Assembly (NCBI GenBank): GCA_027485995.1 | Contig: JAIXPW010000183.1 | Span: forward strand, 1-64,000 | Direction of reading: 5' to 3' | Source of the DNA: Verrucomicrobiaceae bacterium | Lineage (GTDB): Bacteria; Verrucomicrobiota; Verrucomicrobiia; Verrucomicrobiales; Akkermansiaceae | DNA length: 64,000 nucleotides | Shown here: one piece after another, positions 45,535-53,046 of the stretch | Layout: each line of letters opens with the position of its first letter | Position numbering within the stretch: position 1 is the stretch's first letter | Position numbers and translations under genes: made by a program | The notes under the pieces: model-generated | Database searches by the model: none | Told to the model about the DNA's origin: nothing | Seen by the model: the letters and a program-made list of their open reading frames with translations, nothing else

Positions 45535-45807
45535 ATGTCCCAAGCCATCATCGATCCCGAGGAGGTCCGCCGCTTTGCTGCGGAGCTAAAGCGCTTCAAT
45601 GGCGATCTGCGCGAACGCAGCGCCTCGCTGATGGCCCGCTTCACCGCTTTGGGGGATACGTGGCAGGATCAGGAACAGGAAAAGTTCGCGGCGGAGTTCA
45701 CTCAGATGATGAAGACCCTGAAATCCTTCGTGGAGCTGTCCGACCGCCACACGCCGTACCTGCTGCGGAAGGCCGAGCGGATCCAACAGTATCTCGACCA
45801 GCGCTGA
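45535..45807 (+). CDS. WXG100-like small helical protein of the FtsK module
   Basis: 90 residues, predicted helical hairpin. It begins MSQAIIDPEEVRRFAAELKR, has the turn region FTALGDTWQDQEQEKFAAEF and ends HTPYLLRKAERIQQYLDQR. WXG100 proteins are about 100 residues with a central W-x-G at the hairpin turn; here it is W-Q-D, then a conserved F six residues later. In type VII secretion these are secreted substrates or partners of the EccC/EssC ATPase. It is the first of four tightly packed genes ending with such an ATPase. No signal peptide. Confidence 0.8.
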   Translation: MSQAIIDPEEVRRFAAELKRFNGDLRERSASLMARFTALGDTWQDQEQEKFAAEFTQMMKTLKSFVELSDRHTPYLLRKAERIQQYLDQR

Positions 45808-45834
45808 GACGACCTCTGCTTTTTTCAACTCGTC

Positions 45835-46359
45835 ATGTCGGACCAAGCCCGGATTTCCTCGATCGACTCCCTCGAACGTTTTCGCGGGCATTTGATCCAG
45901 TACATCGGTCATGCCGGATCCGCGTTGGAGGAAATGGTGAGCGAGGTGCGCCATACCCGGACCTGGCTGGACACCGACCGGGTGCAGCACTGGGGCAATC
46001 AGTTCAAGAAGTGCAAGAAGCAACTGGAGCAGGCTGAGCAGGAGCTTTACAGCGCCACCCTGACCGATCCGAAGGCCAGTCATGCCCTCCAGAAAATGGC
46101 GGTGCTGAAGGCCGAGCGTGCGATGGTGGAGGTTGAGGAAAAACTGCGCGCCTTGAAGCAGTGGCGGCTTCAATTCGACCAACGCACGCAACCGCTCGTC
46201 CAACAGCTCGACCGGATGTTTTCCCACCTCGGCCAGCAACTGCCGCGCGGCGTGCAATCCCTCGGTGAATCCATCAAGGCCCTGCAGGACTACGCCGAAT
46301 CCCAGCGGCCGATGACAAAGGCCCCTGAGCCCAGCCCCGGACCGGACCCCGCACCATGA
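45835..46359 (+). CDS. Helical coiled-coil protein of the FtsK module
   Basis: 174 residues, no signal peptide or membrane helix, strongly helical with heptad-like spacing. It contains VRHTRTWLDTDRVQHWGNQFKKCKKQLEQ, so it too carries W-x-D with an aromatic residue later, as in the 90- and 70-aa neighbours. The C-terminal 18 residues are Pro-rich (APEPSPGPDPAP). It lies 27 bp downstream of the first gene and overlaps the third by 4 bp (ATGA). A role as a longer substrate, chaperone or structural rod is conceivable; no family recognised. Confidence 0.7.
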   Translation: MSDQARISSIDSLERFRGHLIQYIGHAGSALEEMVSEVRHTRTWLDTDRVQHWGNQFKKCKKQLEQAEQELYSATLTDPKASHALQKMAVLKAERAMVEVEEKLRALKQWRLQFDQRTQPLVQQLDRMFSHLGQQLPRGVQSLGESIKALQDYAESQRPMTKAPEPSPGPDPAP

Positions 46360-46568
46360 GCATTTCCGACAGCAAGGGGCTTCTAACAGGTGCCACCCGC
46401 CAGCTCCAGGAACACTGGCAGGAAACCCTCTCGTCCTGGCGCGACCGCAAGGCGGAGGACTTTGAAAAACTCTATCTCGCGGATCTCGCGACCGCCGTGA
46501 ACTCGGCCGTCCGGGCCATCGAGGAACTCGAACGACTGCTCCACAAAGTCCATGCCGACTGCGACTGA
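46356..46568 (+). CDS. Small WXG-like helical protein of the FtsK module
   Basis: 70 residues, helical, with LQEHWQETLSSWRDRKAEDFEKLYL in the middle. W-R-D followed by F six residues on is the same spacing as W-Q-D ... F in the 90-aa protein. It overlaps the preceding gene by 4 bp and the following ATPase gene by 17 bp, so translation is probably coupled. It contains one CTA-ACA pair in the recurrent TCTAACAG octamer. Function by analogy: second WXG100-like partner. It is shorter than the usual 90-100 residues. Confidence 0.7.
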   Translation: MSISDSKGLLTGATRQLQEHWQETLSSWRDRKAEDFEKLYLADLATAVNSAVRAIEELERLLHKVHADCD

Positions 46569-49500
46569 ATCCATCGACCCCGGCCAGATGCTGGGAGATC
46601 TCGAACGCCTGAAAGATGGCCTGGCCACCGCCCTTTCCCGCGAGGAGGAGCTGGATCGCGTTCGCGAGCAGGAGCGGGTGCAGCGTTCCCGCGAGATCAC
46701 GGCACAGGAGAAACGGGATGCCGAAATCCTCGAAGCCCGTGTGGCGGAGCAGGTGGTGATTCAAAATGATATCATCGGCCAGCAACAAGTGGCCTATGAA
46801 CTTCGCCTCGCCAGGATCCGGCAGGCCTATCATTCCAGCCGCAGCACGCTGGCGGAGCGGATGCAGGCATTGAAGGAAACGCGAATCCGCTCCGGACATG
46901 GTTCGCTGGTGGCCAGTCGCCAAAGACGCGCCCAGGAGCTGGCTGAAGCGGGGGAGGCTCATCAGGCATTCAAGGCCTTGCTCGCCGCCGATCTGGAAAG
47001 CCGGACCACTTTGCGGAATTCAGCACGCAGCGCCTTGCGTTCTTATCGTGCCTTGCTGCTTCGCGAGATGGATCGGTCCGACAAGTCGATCCCGACCGAC
47101 GACCTCAGCCCGGAGGAATTGCGCACCCGCCTTCAAGCCGATCTCAAGGCGGCGGATGAGGCTGTGAACGCCGCGCGAGGCCAGCCACTGGCGAAGCTGT
47201 TCCGTTTCCTGTCGCTCTCGGGGCTGGTCGCTGTGATCGGTGCCGCAATGATCTGGCAAGCCTCGCACTCACCGGGTGGCCTTGCATCTGGCTGGCCAAA
47301 GATCGCGATTGCGCAAGGCGCGCTGCTGTTTTTCTGGCTCGTCGGGCTCGTGATGGCCCTGCCTTCGGGAAAGGAAATCAACCGCTCGCTGCGAAGCGCC
47401 CTCACTCATGCGCAGGCCGCACGCAAGGCCTCCAGCGCCCGCCTCTCCGCCTTGCAGGCGAAGTTTGATCAGGATGAAAAGGAGCAGAGTCAGGAGATCA
47501 CCGGTCTCTTCAACGAGGCCGACACCGAGTTGAAATCCCTGATGGCCCAGGGCCTGAAGAAGCTGGAGCAGCAGCAGGCACGACTTCCAGGAAAGCTCGA
47601 GAAGCTCCATCAGCGGAAGCTTTCCCAACTGAACGAGATCCATTCTCAGGCGGTCGATGCCATCCGGGCCGAGGCCGATTCGATCGCGGAAATGCGTCAG
47701 CAGGCACGAAGGCAGGCGGACCTCGACACGCATGCGGTGATGGATGCGGCGCTTGAATCATTTCAAGGCCCGTGGCAGTCGGAGATGGCTCCGATTCACG
47801 AGCGCTTGATGAAACTGGATGCGAGGGCTGCGGCGCTCTTTCCTTCCTGGACTCATGATATCTGTGCCTCTTGGAGCCCGCCGCAGGAAGCCCCGCAGTC
47901 GGTGAGGATCGGCGAACTGGAGGTCGAACTTTCCGCGATGCATGGCAGCCTGCCGAGGGATCGACGACTGAACTTGCCTGATCCCTCGCGTTTCACGGTG
48001 CCACTCGCCTTGGGCTTTCCGGAGCGTGGTTCATTGCTGATCGAGACCACCGATGATTCCTCCGCTGCGGTCGATGCGCTGAACGGTATCGCTCTCCGGC
48101 TGCTCGCCAGTTTCCCGCCGGGCCGCGCGTCGTTTGTGTTCATCGATCCGGTCGGGCTCGGTCGTGGCTTCGCCGGGCTGATGCATCTTTCCGATTACGA
48201 GGAAACGCTGATCACGAACCGCATCTGGACCCAGACGACGCACATCGAGGAACGACTCGCCGAGCTAAGCGACCACATCGAGAAGGTGATCCAGATGTAT
48301 CTCCGAAACGAGTATGCCACGATCGCCGACTATAACGAGCAGGCCGGCAGCGTGGCCGAGAAATACCGCTTCCTGGTGATCGCCGGCTTCCCCTCTGCGT
48401 TCAGTGAAAGCGCGGCGAAACGCCTGCTTTCGATCGCTTCCAGCGGCGCGCGCTGCGGAGTGCATCTGCTGATCCAGTGCGATGCGAGGCAGTCCGTGAT
48501 CGATCACGCGCTTTACGATGAACTCCGCCGTGCCTGTCTCAAGGTGACCTTCGACAAGGGAATCTTTCATCTAACAGAAGCACCGCAGGGAGCATCGACG
48601 ATCCGTTTCGATCAAGCGCCGCACGATGACGATGCCTCCGTGCTGATCCATCGCATCGGTCGGGCCAGCACCGACTCCAATCGCGTGGAGGTGCCGTTTT
48701 CCCACATCGCGCCGCCAGCCGGTGATCGTTGGACCTCCGACACCTCGGACGAGCTGCGCGTGCCGATCGGTCGCGCCGGAGCGAAGAAACTGCAGATGCT
48801 CGCACTCGGCAAGGGCACCCGCCAGCACATGCTCGTGGCGGGCAAGACCGGCTCCGGAAAATCGACGCTCTTTCATGTCATCATCACCAATCTCGCGCTG
48901 TGGTGCAGCCCGGAGCAGGTCGAGTTCTACCTGGTCGATTTCAAGAAGGGCGTAGAGTTCAAGTGCTATGCCTCGAAGCAACTGCCGCATGCCCGCGTGG
49001 TGGCGATCGAGAGCGATCGCGAGTTTGCGCTCAGCGTGCTCCAGCAGGTCGATGCCGAGTTGAAGCGTCGTGGTGAACTTTTCCGCCGTGCGGGATCGCA
49101 GGATCTTCCCTCCTACAACCGCAGCGCGGAAAAGCGGATGCCGCGCACCTTGTTGCTGATCGATGAGTTCCAGGAGTTCTTCACCGAAGATGATTCGGTC
49201 GCGCAGGAGGCCTCCCTGCTGTTGGACCGCATCGTCCGACAGGGTCGCGCCTTCGGCATTCATGTCATCCTCGGCTCGCAGACCCTCGGCGGGGCCTACA
49301 CGCTCGCCCGCGCCACGCTCGGCCAGATGGTCATCCGCGTGGCGCTCCAGTGCAACGAGGCCGATGCCCACCTCATCATGGACGAGGACAACCCGGCCCC
49401 GCGCCTGCTGACGCGGCCTGGCGAAGGCATCTACAACGACCAGGCTGGCGCGCTCGCCGCGAACAGCCCGTTCCAGATCGTCTGGCTGCCCGAACAGGAA

Positions 49501-50421
49501 CGCGATGCGATCCTCGATGACGTTGCTATCCTTGCGAGTGCCGGAGGAAAGACCGCGCCGGTGCCGGTCGTGTTCGAGGGAAATGCCCCGGCGGAAATCC
49601 GCGAGAACGTCGAGCTGGCTGCCTTCATTGGAAAGACTCCGGCCACCCGACCTGCCAGTGCCCGCGCCTGGCTCGGAGCCCCGAACTCAATCAAGGGGCC
49701 GACCGCCGCCGTGTTCCAGCGACAGAGCGGCAGCCATCTTCTAACCGTCGGCCAGTCTTCGGAGCGCACCGCTTCACTGCTGCTTGTGTCGATTCTTTCC
49801 CTCGCCGCGCAGTATGCTCCGGATCAGGCCGAGTTCGTCATCCTCGATCCTCATACCGCCGATGAATCCGCCGACAGCCCGTTCCGGAAACTCAGTTCGT
49901 TGCTGCCGCATCGGGTAAGGATCGGTGGTCCCTCGGATGTGTCCGATCTCATGTCCGATCTTTCCACCACCATGGAAGCCCGCAATTTCGGCGCTTCATC
50001 TGGAGCGGAAATCTTCCTCCTCATTCACGACCTCCAACGCTTCAAGTCGCTACGGCCGGACGATGATTTCCGTTTCTCGCTTGATGACGATTCCTCCGCG
50101 CCGAAGCCCTCGCAGGCCTTCGCCAACCTCCTCAACGAAGGCGGCCCTGTCGGCATGCACCTGCTTGCCTCGACCGACACCTGGAACAACGTCAGCCGCT
50201 GGATTCCACGCAAGCTGCTGGCGGAATTCGAGATGCGGGTCCTGTTCCAGATGAGCGCCAACGACTCCGCCAACCTCATCGACTCGCCCGCCGCCGCCAA
50301 CCTCGGTCTGCATCGCGCGCTCTTCCACAACGAGCATCTCGGCAGCGCCGAAACCTTCCGGCCTTATGCGATGCCGGATGAGACATGGGTGGGGGAGATG
50401 GCGGGGAGGCTGAAAGCGTGA
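46552..50421 (+). CDS. FtsK/SpoIIIE-type ATPase (EssC/EccC-like)
   Basis: 1289 residues. Order: a coiled coil (about 25-200); two membrane helices (about 217-235 and 255-272); a second coiled coil (about 280-430); a degenerate ATPase-like domain (about 470-700); an intact FtsK domain with Walker A AGKTGSGKSTLF (near 764) and Walker B TLLLIDEFQEFF (near 868); and a last ATPase-like domain (about 1010-1289) lacking a P loop (VGQSSERTASLL in its place). Two membrane helices and chained ATPase domains, of which only one looks active, are the EssC/EccC plan. In type VII secretion this motor drives WXG100 export. No EccB, EccD, EsaA or mycosin gene is adjacent. Confidence 0.85.
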   Translation: MPTATESIDPGQMLGDLERLKDGLATALSREEELDRVREQERVQRSREITAQEKRDAEILEARVAEQVVIQNDIIGQQQVAYELRLARIRQAYHSSRSTLAERMQALKETRIRSGHGSLVASRQRRAQELAEAGEAHQAFKALLAADLESRTTLRNSARSALRSYRALLLREMDRSDKSIPTDDLSPEELRTRLQADLKAADEAVNAARGQPLAKLFRFLSLSGLVAVIGAAMIWQASHSPGGLASGWPKIAIAQGALLFFWLVGLVMALPSGKEINRSLRSALTHAQAARKASSARLSALQAKFDQDEKEQSQEITGLFNEADTELKSLMAQGLKKLEQQQARLPGKLEKLHQRKLSQLNEIHSQAVDAIRAEADSIAEMRQQARRQADLDTHAVMDAALESFQGPWQSEMAPIHERLMKLDARAAALFPSWTHDICASWSPPQEAPQSVRIGELEVELSAMHGSLPRDRRLNLPDPSRFTVPLALGFPERGSLLIETTDDSSAAVDALNGIALRLLASFPPGRASFVFIDPVGLGRGFAGLMHLSDYEETLITNRIWTQTTHIEERLAELSDHIEKVIQMYLRNEYATIADYNEQAGSVAEKYRFLVIAGFPSAFSESAAKRLLSIASSGARCGVHLLIQCDARQSVIDHALYDELRRACLKVTFDKGIFHLTEAPQGASTIRFDQAPHDDDASVLIHRIGRASTDSNRVEVPFSHIAPPAGDRWTSDTSDELRVPIGRAGAKKLQMLALGKGTRQHMLVAGKTGSGKSTLFHVIITNLALWCSPEQVEFYLVDFKKGVEFKCYASKQLPHARVVAIESDREFALSVLQQVDAELKRRGELFRRAGSQDLPSYNRSAEKRMPRTLLLIDEFQEFFTEDDSVAQEASLLLDRIVRQGRAFGIHVILGSQTLGGAYTLARATLGQMVIRVALQCNEADAHLIMDEDNPAPRLLTRPGEGIYNDQAGALAANSPFQIVWLPEQERDAILDDVAILASAGGKTAPVPVVFEGNAPAEIRENVELAAFIGKTPATRPASARAWLGAPNSIKGPTAAVFQRQSGSHLLTVGQSSERTASLLLVSILSLAAQYAPDQAEFVILDPHTADESADSPFRKLSSLLPHRVRIGGPSDVSDLMSDLSTTMEARNFGASSGAEIFLLIHDLQRFKSLRPDDDFRFSLDDDSSAPKPSQAFANLLNEGGPVGMHLLASTDTWNNVSRWIPRKLLAEFEMRVLFQMSANDSANLIDSPAAANLGLHRALFHNEHLGSAETFRPYAMPDETWVGEMAGRLKA

Positions 50422-50475: not shown

Positions 50476-53046
50476 TCAGCACACTCTCCGCCTCCTGAGC
50501 AGGGCCACCGTGCTGCCGGTGATGATCAGCAGCCAGGTTGAAGGCTCTGGGATGTTTGGAATCGATGGAACCGAATCCGGATTCACCGGTTCCAAACCGG
50601 CCTTCTGATATTGCTCCGCCGTCTCCAGCACGACGGCCCCTGAGGTCGGGGTCACCAGTTGATAGCGGGCCTTGATCCCATCCTTGTCCTCCGGCAGGGA
50701 CGCCGCCCAGAATCTCGCCAGTTGGTCCCAAACCTTCCGGCCAGTCAGGCCTTCCGGGCCCGCCGAGCGCGACCATTCCCATTGGGTCATCGAAACTTCC
50801 CCGCTCTTGAAGGATTTGAGGAACGCAGGGAAATCCTTCGCCGGATCGATCAGCGTCGGGCCACGCAGCAGGGAGCCGCTTCGGTAAATCTGTTCCGCCA
50901 GGCGATTGGGTCCCGACTTCGCCTCGATCTCCATGATCATCGGACGTCGGCTGCCGCGCTCCATTCGCTGCAACAGCGCCTCCGGACGGGAGAGCTTCAC
51001 GGCCTGAGGTCCATGAATCCACAGGATCGGTGAGGAAGGCTCATTTCGCGCAGCCAACTCGACTGCCTCACGAAGGGCGGCTTCGTTGTCGCGGCCTCCC
51101 GAGAAACGGTAATCCGCCAAGCCCTGAAGCTCGATCCGCCGGGCCTGGTCGTCCGCCAGGATCAGGGTGCAAGCGCCGTCCGCATACTCCGATTTCAGAC
51201 CTGCCAGAATCCAATCCTTCGCCTCCTTCAATCCCGCCGATCCATCCACCACGATCACCGGCGGTCCGAAATTCTTCCGCACTCCCGCCATCGGCTTGCG
51301 GGTCAAAACCCGTTCCTCAGGCTTGGCAAAAGGGTCCTCACACCACACCTCGCCAGCTGGACTCTCCAACCCGTCAAAGCGCACCGCCATGGTCTTTTCA
51401 TCCTCACGGGTGCCTGGCAGTGAGACCGAGAGCGATTGTCCCGGACCGTCCATATTCGACCTGGGTGCTCCCATGCCTCCCTCTAACAGGAATGGCTGAT
51501 CTCCCTGGAGCCACACGGAATGCTCCAGCCCGGACTGAAGACCGAAGTTCTGTTCCACAATCTTCGGCAGCTCCCAACGACCTGAGTCCGTGAGTGGAGC
51601 CGTGATGCCCAGGCGGATCTTCATCCGACCATTCCCCGGCACGGGAAAGCATTGGACCATCACCGTATCCGGACCGCACATCGTGACCAGCACCGGATCG
51701 CGGCTCTGCCTGACCGCGACTTCCTGATAGGCGGCCTTCACCTTTGCCACCGTGCTGAAGGCGGCCTCACGCGGTTCGCCATTCACCCACAAGGTCAGGC
51801 GCGACACCCGTCCATCGCGCGGCAAGCGGACCTGGCAGCGGGCCTCCCGCGCCCTGGGGTCGCCGTTGGCGAAGACCATTGTCCACTCTGCATAGCCCAG
51901 TTGCGAGGCCGCATCGAAGTGGCCGTCGAGTCGCGACTCCGCGAGGTCCAGGTTCTTCAGGCGCACCGCCACCTGGTCGGACCCCACATAGTCGTCGAAC
52001 TGGAGTTGCTCCATGTCCCCGCGTCCCCGACCTCCGTCACGCAGCGCGGACTTCGGTGGCCTGACCGTGTTGAAGCCCTTGCCGGTCACCCGAAAGAAAA
52101 GTTCCCTCGCAAGCTCGGAGTCGTGCGGCTGTGGGTTGGCCCCGCCGAACATCATCACGGGAATCCGCCAGCCCTGCATCATCCATCCGGAAATGTCGGT
52201 GGCCATCTGCGTACCACGATTCCCCTCGTAGCAGGTTTTCAGCAGGGTGCTTTCCGAATGGAAGGCCCGCAGCCGGTCGATCGCCTTCTGGCTGGGCTCC
52301 TTGCCTATGGCGAGATCGACATTCAATCTTGTCCACAGTCCCGGGCCTTCCAGCAGCACCAGCACCAGGGTGGTCAGGATCAGTGAGATCTTCCGCGCCT
52401 GGCGGAATCCCTTTTCATGATCAGCTGTGATGTGTCGCGAGAGCCTCCACGACACCAGCGCGGCCAGGAGCGGGGTGAGGGAAAGCAGGCCCATTCCAAA
52501 GGCAATCAACGCGATCACCGAGGCAGGCAGCAGCGGCAGGAAAAGCAGAGCGTAGAAGACCGAGATCACCAGAACGCTCCCGGTCAGCGCCCCGACCCAG
52601 CTTGCGGCCCTCTGACCCGCCTTGATGAGAAGATAAGCGTTTCCAAATGGCACCAGGGCCAGCAGCAGGACATGCCAGATCGTAGGCACTGGATCAAAGA
52701 AGACCCCGCCACAGAAGCCGGATCCGATCTCGAACACGGTTACGCCCAACGGGAACACCACGCCGAACGTCCAGTTGAAGAAGCGCTTGAAGCCCGCCCA
52801 CTTCGAGGTCGGCAAGGCCCTTGCCTCCTTGGCTGGCCGATAGCCGCCATCGAGCCGCTGCAGGATTCCCTCCAGCGCCATCAACCCCAGGCTGTCTCCC
52901 GGCTCGCGTTCCGCCTCCTCATGAATGTGGCAGCGCAGGTCCGCCTTGAACTCCTCCGCCTCGTCTCCAGCGAAACCTTCCCGTGTGGCCCTCCCGTCGA
53001 GATACTCCACCAATCGACGCTCTGCCTGTGTGGTCCAAGTCTTCAT
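50476..53046 (-). CDS. Polytopic VIT-domain protein with PEP-CTERM signal
   Basis: 856 residues. The N-terminal 65 residues form a helical module of the type seen beside PadR regulators. Several membrane helices follow (about 85-260). From about 330 the chain is soluble, with a VIT-like part near 430-500 (RLTLWVNGEPREAAF, AKVKAAYQEVAVRQSRDPVLV) and a later vWA-like region (PPVIVVDGSAGLKEAKDWIL). The C-terminus IPEPSTWLLIITGSTVALL followed by RRRR is a PEP-CTERM sorting signal, which exosortase would cut at the outer face. An exosortase gene is not in the window. The PadR gene lies 60 bp upstream. Confidence 0.75.
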   Translation of the reverse strand: MKTWTTQAERRLVEYLDGRATREGFAGDEAEEFKADLRCHIHEEAEREPGDSLGLMALEGILQRLDGGYRPAKEARALPTSKWAGFKRFFNWTFGVVFPLGVTVFEIGSGFCGGVFFDPVPTIWHVLLLALVPFGNAYLLIKAGQRAASWVGALTGSVLVISVFYALLFLPLLPASVIALIAFGMGLLSLTPLLAALVSWRLSRHITADHEKGFRQARKISLILTTLVLVLLEGPGLWTRLNVDLAIGKEPSQKAIDRLRAFHSESTLLKTCYEGNRGTQMATDISGWMMQGWRIPVMMFGGANPQPHDSELARELFFRVTGKGFNTVRPPKSALRDGGRGRGDMEQLQFDDYVGSDQVAVRLKNLDLAESRLDGHFDAASQLGYAEWTMVFANGDPRAREARCQVRLPRDGRVSRLTLWVNGEPREAAFSTVAKVKAAYQEVAVRQSRDPVLVTMCGPDTVMVQCFPVPGNGRMKIRLGITAPLTDSGRWELPKIVEQNFGLQSGLEHSVWLQGDQPFLLEGGMGAPRSNMDGPGQSLSVSLPGTREDEKTMAVRFDGLESPAGEVWCEDPFAKPEERVLTRKPMAGVRKNFGPPVIVVDGSAGLKEAKDWILAGLKSEYADGACTLILADDQARRIELQGLADYRFSGGRDNEAALREAVELAARNEPSSPILWIHGPQAVKLSRPEALLQRMERGSRRPMIMEIEAKSGPNRLAEQIYRSGSLLRGPTLIDPAKDFPAFLKSFKSGEVSMTQWEWSRSAGPEGLTGRKVWDQLARFWAASLPEDKDGIKARYQLVTPTSGAVVLETAEQYQKAGLEPVNPDSVPSIPNIPEPSTWLLIITGSTVALLRRRRVC

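What the first reader, a model, noticed from the sequence alone, without database searches (positions are those of the whole stretch)
45535..50421. Compact type VII-like module: three W-x-D helical proteins and an EssC-like FtsK ATPase in a diderm
Four genes with gaps or overlaps of +27, -4 and -17 bp encode a 90-aa, a 174-aa and a 70-aa helical protein plus a 1289-aa ATPase with two membrane helices and one intact FtsK P loop. All three small proteins carry W-x-D near their centre (WQDQEQEKF, WLDTDRVQHW, WRDRKAEDF), in two of them with F six residues on. This resembles WXG100 substrates with their EccC/EssC motor, but without EccB, EccD, EsaA or mycosin partners. Known type VII systems are best studied in Actinomycetota and Bacillota. 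A minimal version in a diderm, or one for a different substrate class, would be new.
Basis: partly seen in the sequence, partly recalled or inferred. Interest (0 to 1): 0.85.

Follow-up and report, generated by a model that had tools for sequence, protein, structure and literature searches.

The report
Four-gene type VII-like export cassette
A four-gene cassette in this outer-membrane-bearing bacterium encodes a WXG100 protein, two helical partners and an EccC/EssC-like membrane motor, so it is probably a stripped-down relative of the type VII secretion machine; the kind was noted in 2012, but I found no paper describing this membrane-anchored, toxin-less form or its wide spread in Verrucomicrobiota and Planctomycetota.

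Summary
In detail: four co-directional genes (45535-50421), junctions +27, -4, -17 bp. Gene 1 is a true WXG100 protein (Pfam 2e-11). Gene 4 is an EccC/EssC-type motor: two TM segments, EccC DUF-like domain, one intact FtsK ATPase domain, degenerate last domain. Gene 3 is a half-length WXG100 relative. Gene 2 is a long helical hairpin; its W-x-D is chance (5 of 30 relatives).

The gene order recurs in 36 Verrucomicrobiota loci and 45 others, mostly Planctomycetota, with unrelated flanks. Gene 2 is homologous to the coiled-coil half of a coiled-coil-nuclease protein in TM-less relatives; a few gene 2 proteins carry extra C-terminal domains. It is the likely cargo.

Best reading: a minimal, inner-membrane-anchored type VII-like exporter in a diderm. 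Export is untested, the outer-membrane step unknown, and the TM-less relatives weaken the inference.

Not categorically new: a 2012 table footnote and a 2024 CoCoNuT paper already note WXG100 plus middle-active EssC-like ATPase operons, and HP0062 (W-R-D, FtsK neighbour) was known. Added here: the four-gene core, the TM anchor, the nature of genes 2 and 3, and the breadth.

The parts
45535..45807 (+). gene 1 (s1): 90-aa WXG100 protein, W43-x-D45
   Evidence: Pfam WXG100 E=2e-11 over cut-off; W43 and D45 invariant in 31 relatives; PDB HP0062 1.7e-17, EsxB about 1e-9; the only PF06013 match in the genome
45835..46359 (+). gene 2 (s2): 174-aa long two-helix hairpin with a Pro-rich tail; likely cargo or carrier domain
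   Evidence: AF2 pLDDT 90.9, helices 2-77 and 84-156; homologous to the N-terminal part of the 436-aa PD-(D/E)xK-like protein of TM-less relatives (hhalign 92.6%, 4.5e-7); single copy per genome
46356..46568 (+). gene 3 (s3): 70-aa half-length WXG100 relative, W28-x-D30, F36
   Evidence: W28, D30, F36 invariant in 27 relatives; hhalign with the s1 family 87.9% and 92.2%, 5.8e-7, on larger sets
46552..50421 (+). gene 4: 1289-aa EccC/EssC-like FtsK-family motor
   Evidence: TIGR03925/03924/03928 2.5e-34 to 3e-27, all under their curated cut-offs; PDB EccC 3.7e-34; Foldseek EccC 2.0e-37
47188..47358 (+). two TM-like segments of gene 4 (residues 213-231 and 251-269)
   Evidence: hydropathy scan: two segments in most compact relatives, none in most of the TM-less type
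47842..48681 (+). EccC DUF-like degenerate first domain (about residues 431-710)
   Evidence: model residues 2-321 align to EccC stalk plus DUF of ESX-3 (6umm, Z 15.2) and ESX-5 (7b9f, Z 15.1); no P loop
48745..49566 (+). active FtsK/SpoIIIE domain (about residues 732-1005), P loop 48841-48864, Walker B DE 49162-49167
   Evidence: PF01580 1.1e-34; motif residues invariant
49567..50418 (+). degenerate D3-like last domain (about residues 1006-1289)
   Evidence: model residues 616-884 align to EssC D3 6tv1, Z 18.4; no P loop in the sequence

Best explanation
A minimal type VII-like protein export unit. Gene 4 sits in the inner membrane by its TM hairpin and, like EccC/EssC, oligomerises and uses its single active FtsK domain to move protein (inferred from homology and predicted fold). 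The WXG100 protein (gene 1), the short WXG relative (gene 3) and the long hairpin (gene 2) form a helical pre-secretion complex; gene 2 is the cargo, gene 1 and probably gene 3 are the WXG-type targeting partners recognised by the motor (inferred). In the window and in most relatives gene 2 is a carrier with only a disordered tail, so the export product would be gene 2 with gene 1 rather than a toxin; in a few relatives gene 2 carries extra C-terminal domains. Shown: homology, conserved four-gene order, single-copy genes, TM-like segments, predicted fold of gene 2 and of the motor. Not shown: export, complex formation, outer-membrane passage.
For: WXG100 match over cut-off and solved WXG100 relatives. 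Motor nearest to EccC/EssC by profile and fold, including the EccC DUF and EssC D3 domains. Gene order s1-s2-s3-motor in 21 of 21, 15 more Verrucomicrobiota and 45 more loci, with unrelated flanks. TM hairpin in most compact motors. s2 homologous to the carrier half of a nuclease-tipped protein; extended s2 proteins: L148/L169 Imm33-like over cut-off, L136 weak ParB-like, L117 DxK-nuclease-like tail read by eye. In Helicobacter and Campylobacter relatives a colicin-DNase/WHH toxin and a SUKH-type partner lie between the WXG100 gene and the motor, as expected of a machine that handles effectors. s2 has a weak, sub-cut-off match to DUF3958 (1.9e-4), the Lap2 targeting-factor family of T7SSb (PMC9600955).
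Against: No export was or could be tested. The TM-less relatives show that WXG100 plus this kind of motor can exist without a membrane anchor, so export is not a necessary reading. YukD is absent in 7 of 8 genomes and EccB was not found (no positive control). Most s2 proteins have no effector domain and each genome tested has one s2, so no dedicated toxin was found. No route across the outer membrane was seen. The Helicobacter toxin N-terminus is not detectably related to s2, so that link is positional.
Confidence: 0.58

Rival explanations
1. A non-secretory conflict or stress module: the WXG100/EssC-like ATPase complex works inside the cell, and the helical proteins are regulators or scaffolds of the motor, as could hold for the TM-less versions built into CoCoNuT/TerY-P defence islands.
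For: TM-less relatives lie with VWA, Card1-like, PP2C, kinase and AAA genes on a Caballeronia plasmid, and the same ATPase kind is described inside Type III-A CoCoNuT operons (PMC11090510). Patchy distribution.
Against: The compact form shows no recurrent neighbours of that kind in 66 loci checked and has a TM hairpin; its tree mostly follows host groups rather than rapid transfer, with exceptions.
Confidence: 0.22
2. A delivery system for antibacterial effectors, in which s2 variants or unlinked proteins are toxins and the window copy has no toxin domain of its own.
For: Toxin and SUKH-type genes in the same slot in Helicobacter/Campylobacter; extra C-terminal domains on some s2 proteins; PMC3482391 files such ATPases under toxin trafficking.
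Against: None of the 36 Verrucomicrobiota s2 proteins is longer than 193 aa, and no second s2-like protein is confirmed in 15 genomes. Imm33-like is an immunity-type, not a toxin, domain.
Confidence: 0.15
3. A DNA translocase with accessory helical proteins.
For: The active domain also matches FtsK motor structures (Z about 31); an SMC-like ORF lies 2-7 kb downstream in 6 of 45 loci.
Against: Whole-model best Foldseek match is EccC, with EccC DUF and EssC D3 folds in the other domains; the same genomes hold a second, distant FtsK-type ORF of about 830-1050 aa, presumably the housekeeping FtsK; constant WXG partners; no FtsK gamma domain in the Pfam scan.
Confidence: 0.05

Closest known systems
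Stand-alone 'mobile' WXG / YueA-like ATPase systems (PMC3482391, Table 1 footnote 6; Anantharaman et al. 2012 as cited in PMC11090510)
   Same: WXG proteins with a distinct ATPase of three FtsK/HerA domains, only the middle one active; verrucomicrobia and planctomycetes named
   Different: Only a footnote there: no gene 2 or gene 3, no TM hairpin, no cassette described. Here the tree follows host groups in most places, so 'mobile' is doubtful for the compact form
[quoted passage not shown]
   Same: Middle-active EssC-like ATPase with N-terminal coiled coil; a WXG100 protein plus a second WXG100-like one; a coiled-coil protein that (in the loci I take to be this type) is homologous to gene 2 over its N-terminal half
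   Different: Those ATPases lack TM helices and the coiled coil carries a D-ExK nuclease, next to VWA/TerY-P/CoCoNuT genes; the window cassette stands alone, has TM segments and no nuclease
Type VII secretion systems (ESX / T7SSb)
   Same: WXG100 protein and EccC/EssC motor with TM hairpin, DUF and FtsK domains; small helical partners beside the cargo gene, as with Lap1/Lap2-LXG
   Different: One active plus one degenerate ATPase domain after the DUF instead of three; N-terminal 200-residue coiled coil; no EccB or YukD found; no YxxxD/E signal in the small proteins
HP0062 and its FtsK-neighbour cluster in Helicobacter pylori (PDB 3FX7; PMC3397514)
   Same: Closest solved relative of gene 1 (1.7e-17); W-R-D at the hairpin bend, FtsK/SpoIIIE gene in the cluster, in a diderm
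   Different: Related Helicobacter/Campylobacter loci seen here carry toxin and immunity-type genes and a shorter motor without a TM hairpin

Membership tests
WXG100 (PF06013), gene 1 | profile match over the curated cut-off, about 100 residues, W-x-G/D at the bend | tested here: met
   44.4 bits against 27.3; W43-x-D45 invariant. NCBI TIGR03930 is below its cut-off (32.4 against 44.85)
WXG100 (PF06013), gene 2 | profile match and conserved W-x-G/D | tested here: not met
   no PF06013 hit; W-x-D in 5 of 30 relatives; hhalign with s1 13.8% and 31.5%
WXG100 superfamily, gene 3 | homology to WXG100 proteins and conserved W-x-D | tested here: met
   hhalign to s1 92.2%, 5.8e-7, reversed control 1.7%; W28, D30, F36 invariant; but no PF06013 hit and only 70 aa
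Type VII secretion system | EccC/EssC-type membrane ATPase | tested here: met
   with one ATPase domain fewer than EccC, and full-length NCBI equivalog cut-offs not reached
Type VII secretion system | YukD/EsaB or EccD ubiquitin-like component (PF08817) | tested here: not met
   none in the window's genome (84% complete) and in 7 of 8 genomes; one unlinked match in G132; control rang in B. subtilis
Type VII secretion system | EccB (PF05108) | tested here: inconclusive
   0 of 8, but no control genome rang
Type VII secretion system | YxxxD/E export signal at a substrate C-terminus | tested here: not met
   direct reading of the C-termini of genes 1-3; relatives not tallied
Type VII secretion system | motor-dependent secretion of the WXG100 protein | not testable with these tools
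   needs an experiment
WXG100/EssC-like CoCoNuT-type operon | three ATPase-type domains, only the middle one active; N-terminal coiled coil | tested here: met
   coiled coil judged from the sequence of residues 1-210
WXG100/EssC-like CoCoNuT-type operon | no TM helices; coiled-coil protein fused to a D-ExK nuclease; VWA flanks | tested here: not met
   two TM segments; gene 2 ends after its hairpin and tail; unrelated flanks
Polymorphic toxin system | toxin domain with an adjacent immunity gene | tested here: not met
   no such gene in the window cassette, and no conserved gene besides the four in 21 loci

The most novel reading that the evidence does not exclude
A complete one-motor type VII-like exporter of diderm Verrucomicrobiota and Planctomycetota, made of only four genes and dedicated to exporting its own toxin-less helical carrier (gene 2 with gene 1), that is, a non-weapon, surface or envelope use of the type VII principle, with the TM anchor present here and absent in its defence-island cousins.
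Probability: 0.35. Interest if true: 0.75.

Novelty: new variant of a known kind. Interest (0 to 1): 0.52.

Why it matters
Type VII systems are studied in Actinomycetota and Bacillota and need several membrane subunits. A four-gene version with a single active ATPase domain in diderms would show the smallest set that works, give a simple model of WXG100-motor coupling, and link secretion-type and defence-type uses of one ATPase family.

Tried and rejected
DNA translocase reading: rejected because the whole motor model matches EccC best by Foldseek and carries EccC DUF and EssC D3 folds, with constant WXG partners. Three W-x-D proteins: rejected for gene 2. Orphan effectors with an s2 N-terminus elsewhere in the genome: one s2 per genome in 15 genomes, apart from one non-significant second match in G011. 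Compact cassette on plasmids: no plasmid place covers 80% of the motor. Extra conserved partner genes: none in 21 Verrucomicrobiota loci; in 45 further loci only local synteny such as SMC or cytochrome genes. Fold search with the gene 2 model: only generic coiled coils, best E 9e-3, uninformative. s3 against the small protein before the motor in TM-less relatives: no detectable homology (1.5%). Helicobacter toxin N-terminus against s2: none by hhalign (1.3%). Literature searches gave no paper on this module. One attempted alignment failed on wrong coordinates.
Full report
Observation. The four genes, their lengths and junctions are as reported. Gene 1 matches Pfam WXG100 with E 2e-11, over the curated cut-off. 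Gene 4 matches FtsK_SpoIIIE (1.1e-34) and the T7SS models EccCb, EccCa and EssC (2.5e-34 to 3e-27), below their full-length cut-offs; its best solved relative is EccC (3.7e-34).

Conservation. A long relative of the motor is present in many, not all, genomes of the window's genus and order and in 20 of 387 genomes drawn over the phylum (this count includes distant, TM-less relatives). In 20 relatives plus the window the order s1-s2-s3-motor is constant, and outside these four genes almost nothing recurs. Fifteen more Verrucomicrobiota loci have all four. Some motors (for example L127, L129, L140, L165) have no detectable small partners in their flanks. The motor tree mostly follows host groups, which argues for long-term inheritance with loss rather than frequent transfer; a betaproteobacterial motor groups with Chloroflexota. 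Support came from a quick method and the deep joins are unsure.

The small proteins. Gene 1: W43 and D45 are invariant in 31 sequences, including Caballeronia, Helicobacter, Rhodococcus and Deinococcus relatives; its nearest solved relatives are HP0062 of Helicobacter pylori (1.7e-17) and EsxB/EsxA. Gene 3: W28, D30 and F36 invariant, homologous to gene 1 by profile comparison (92.2%, 5.8e-7; reversed control 1.7%), so it is a half-length WXG100 relative. Gene 2: predicted two-helix hairpin of about 75 residues per arm (pLDDT 90.9); its W-x-D is not conserved. There is one WXG100 gene per genome in 8 of 8 and one s2 per genome in 15 genomes.

What gene 2 is. In TM-less relatives (gamma- and betaproteobacteria, one Pirellulaceae, one Verrucomicrobiota) the slot after the WXG100 gene holds a 434-442-aa protein whose N-terminal half is coiled coil and whose C-terminal half carries a PD-(D/E)xK-like D...ExK motif (motif read by eye, no Pfam match). 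Profile comparison shows gene 2 is homologous to that N-terminal half over its whole length (92.6%, E 4.5e-7), while coiled-coil and reversed controls stay under 3%. A few compact-type gene 2 proteins are 350-393 aa: L148 and L169 end in an Imm33-like domain over cut-off, L136 in a weak ParB-like match (0.083), L117 in a stretch that looks like a nuclease by eye only. In Helicobacter and Campylobacter the slot holds a colicin-DNase/WHH toxin followed by a SUKH-type protein, a 76-77-aa protein and the motor; the toxin's N-terminus is not detectably related to gene 2. Together this puts gene 2 in the cargo or carrier position. This is inference from position and homology.

The motor. The predicted structure of residues 390-1289 (pLDDT 88.8) matches EccC as a whole (Foldseek E 2.0e-37). 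By part: residues 391-710 align to the EccC stalk and DUF of the ESX-3 and ESX-5 complexes (Z about 15), the middle to FtsK/EccC/EssC ATPase domains (Z about 28-32), the end to EssC D3 (Z 18.4). Only the middle domain has Walker A and B motifs, which are conserved throughout. Two TM-like segments at 213-231 and 251-269 are present in most compact motors and missing in the TM-less type. Compared with EccC one ATPase module is missing.

Setting. The host has Omp85 proteins (9e-60), so it is a diderm. YukD is absent from its genome and from 6 of 7 others; EccB was not found, but without a positive control.

Prior art. [quoted passage not shown] The 2024 CoCoNuT paper (PMC11090510) describes the TM-less version with two WXG100-type proteins and a coiled-coil-nuclease fusion, stresses that it lacks the TM helices of EssC, and cites Anantharaman et al. 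2012 for the stand-alone operon (the 2012 TerY-P paper itself was not read). HP0062 was linked to WXG100 through its W-R-D bend and FtsK neighbour (PMC3397514). T7SSb LXG cargo is targeted by small helical partners, Lap1 and Lap2 (PMC9600955), a useful functional parallel; gene 2 has only a sub-cut-off match to the Lap2 family.

Verdict. The finding is real and the type VII reading is broadly right, but the kind was already noted. What is added: a strictly conserved four-gene core, the membrane anchor, gene 2 as a toxin-less carrier related to the nuclease-tipped protein of the defence-island version, gene 3 as a half WXG100, and the breadth in Verrucomicrobiota and Planctomycetota. Export is inferred, not shown.

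Noticed in passing
L068 5657-19641 (Caballeronia plasmid pSBC2-5); L081; L100-L114: TM-less version of the module in an island with VWA, Card1-like CARF nuclease, PP2C, kinase and AAA genes; fits the Type III-A CoCoNuT extension of PMC11090510 and also occurs in a Verrucomicrobiota genome (G349) that holds the compact cassette as well.
   Followed up: partly
L070 6743-11145; L125 4873-10358; L166; L115: Helicobacter/Campylobacter loci with a colicin-DNase/WHH toxin and SUKH-type gene between the WXG100 gene and the motor; L125 has two toxin-like copies in tandem.
   Followed up: partly
L132, L143, L153, L156, L175, L177: An SMC-like ORF lies 2-7 kb downstream of the cassette in 6 of 45 loci, probably chromosomal synteny.
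   Followed up: no
L047 11970-12575: About 600 bp separate gene 3 from the motor here, breaking the otherwise common overlap.
   Followed up: no
G031:C51, G114:C61, G122:C177, G107:C79 and others: Several motor genes have one in-frame stop, so the cassette may be decaying in some lineages, or the assemblies have errors.
   Followed up: no
window 50476-53046 (-): 856-aa protein with a VIT domain and a PEP-CTERM tail, similar to XrtN-system VIT proteins; not part of the cassette.
   Followed up: no
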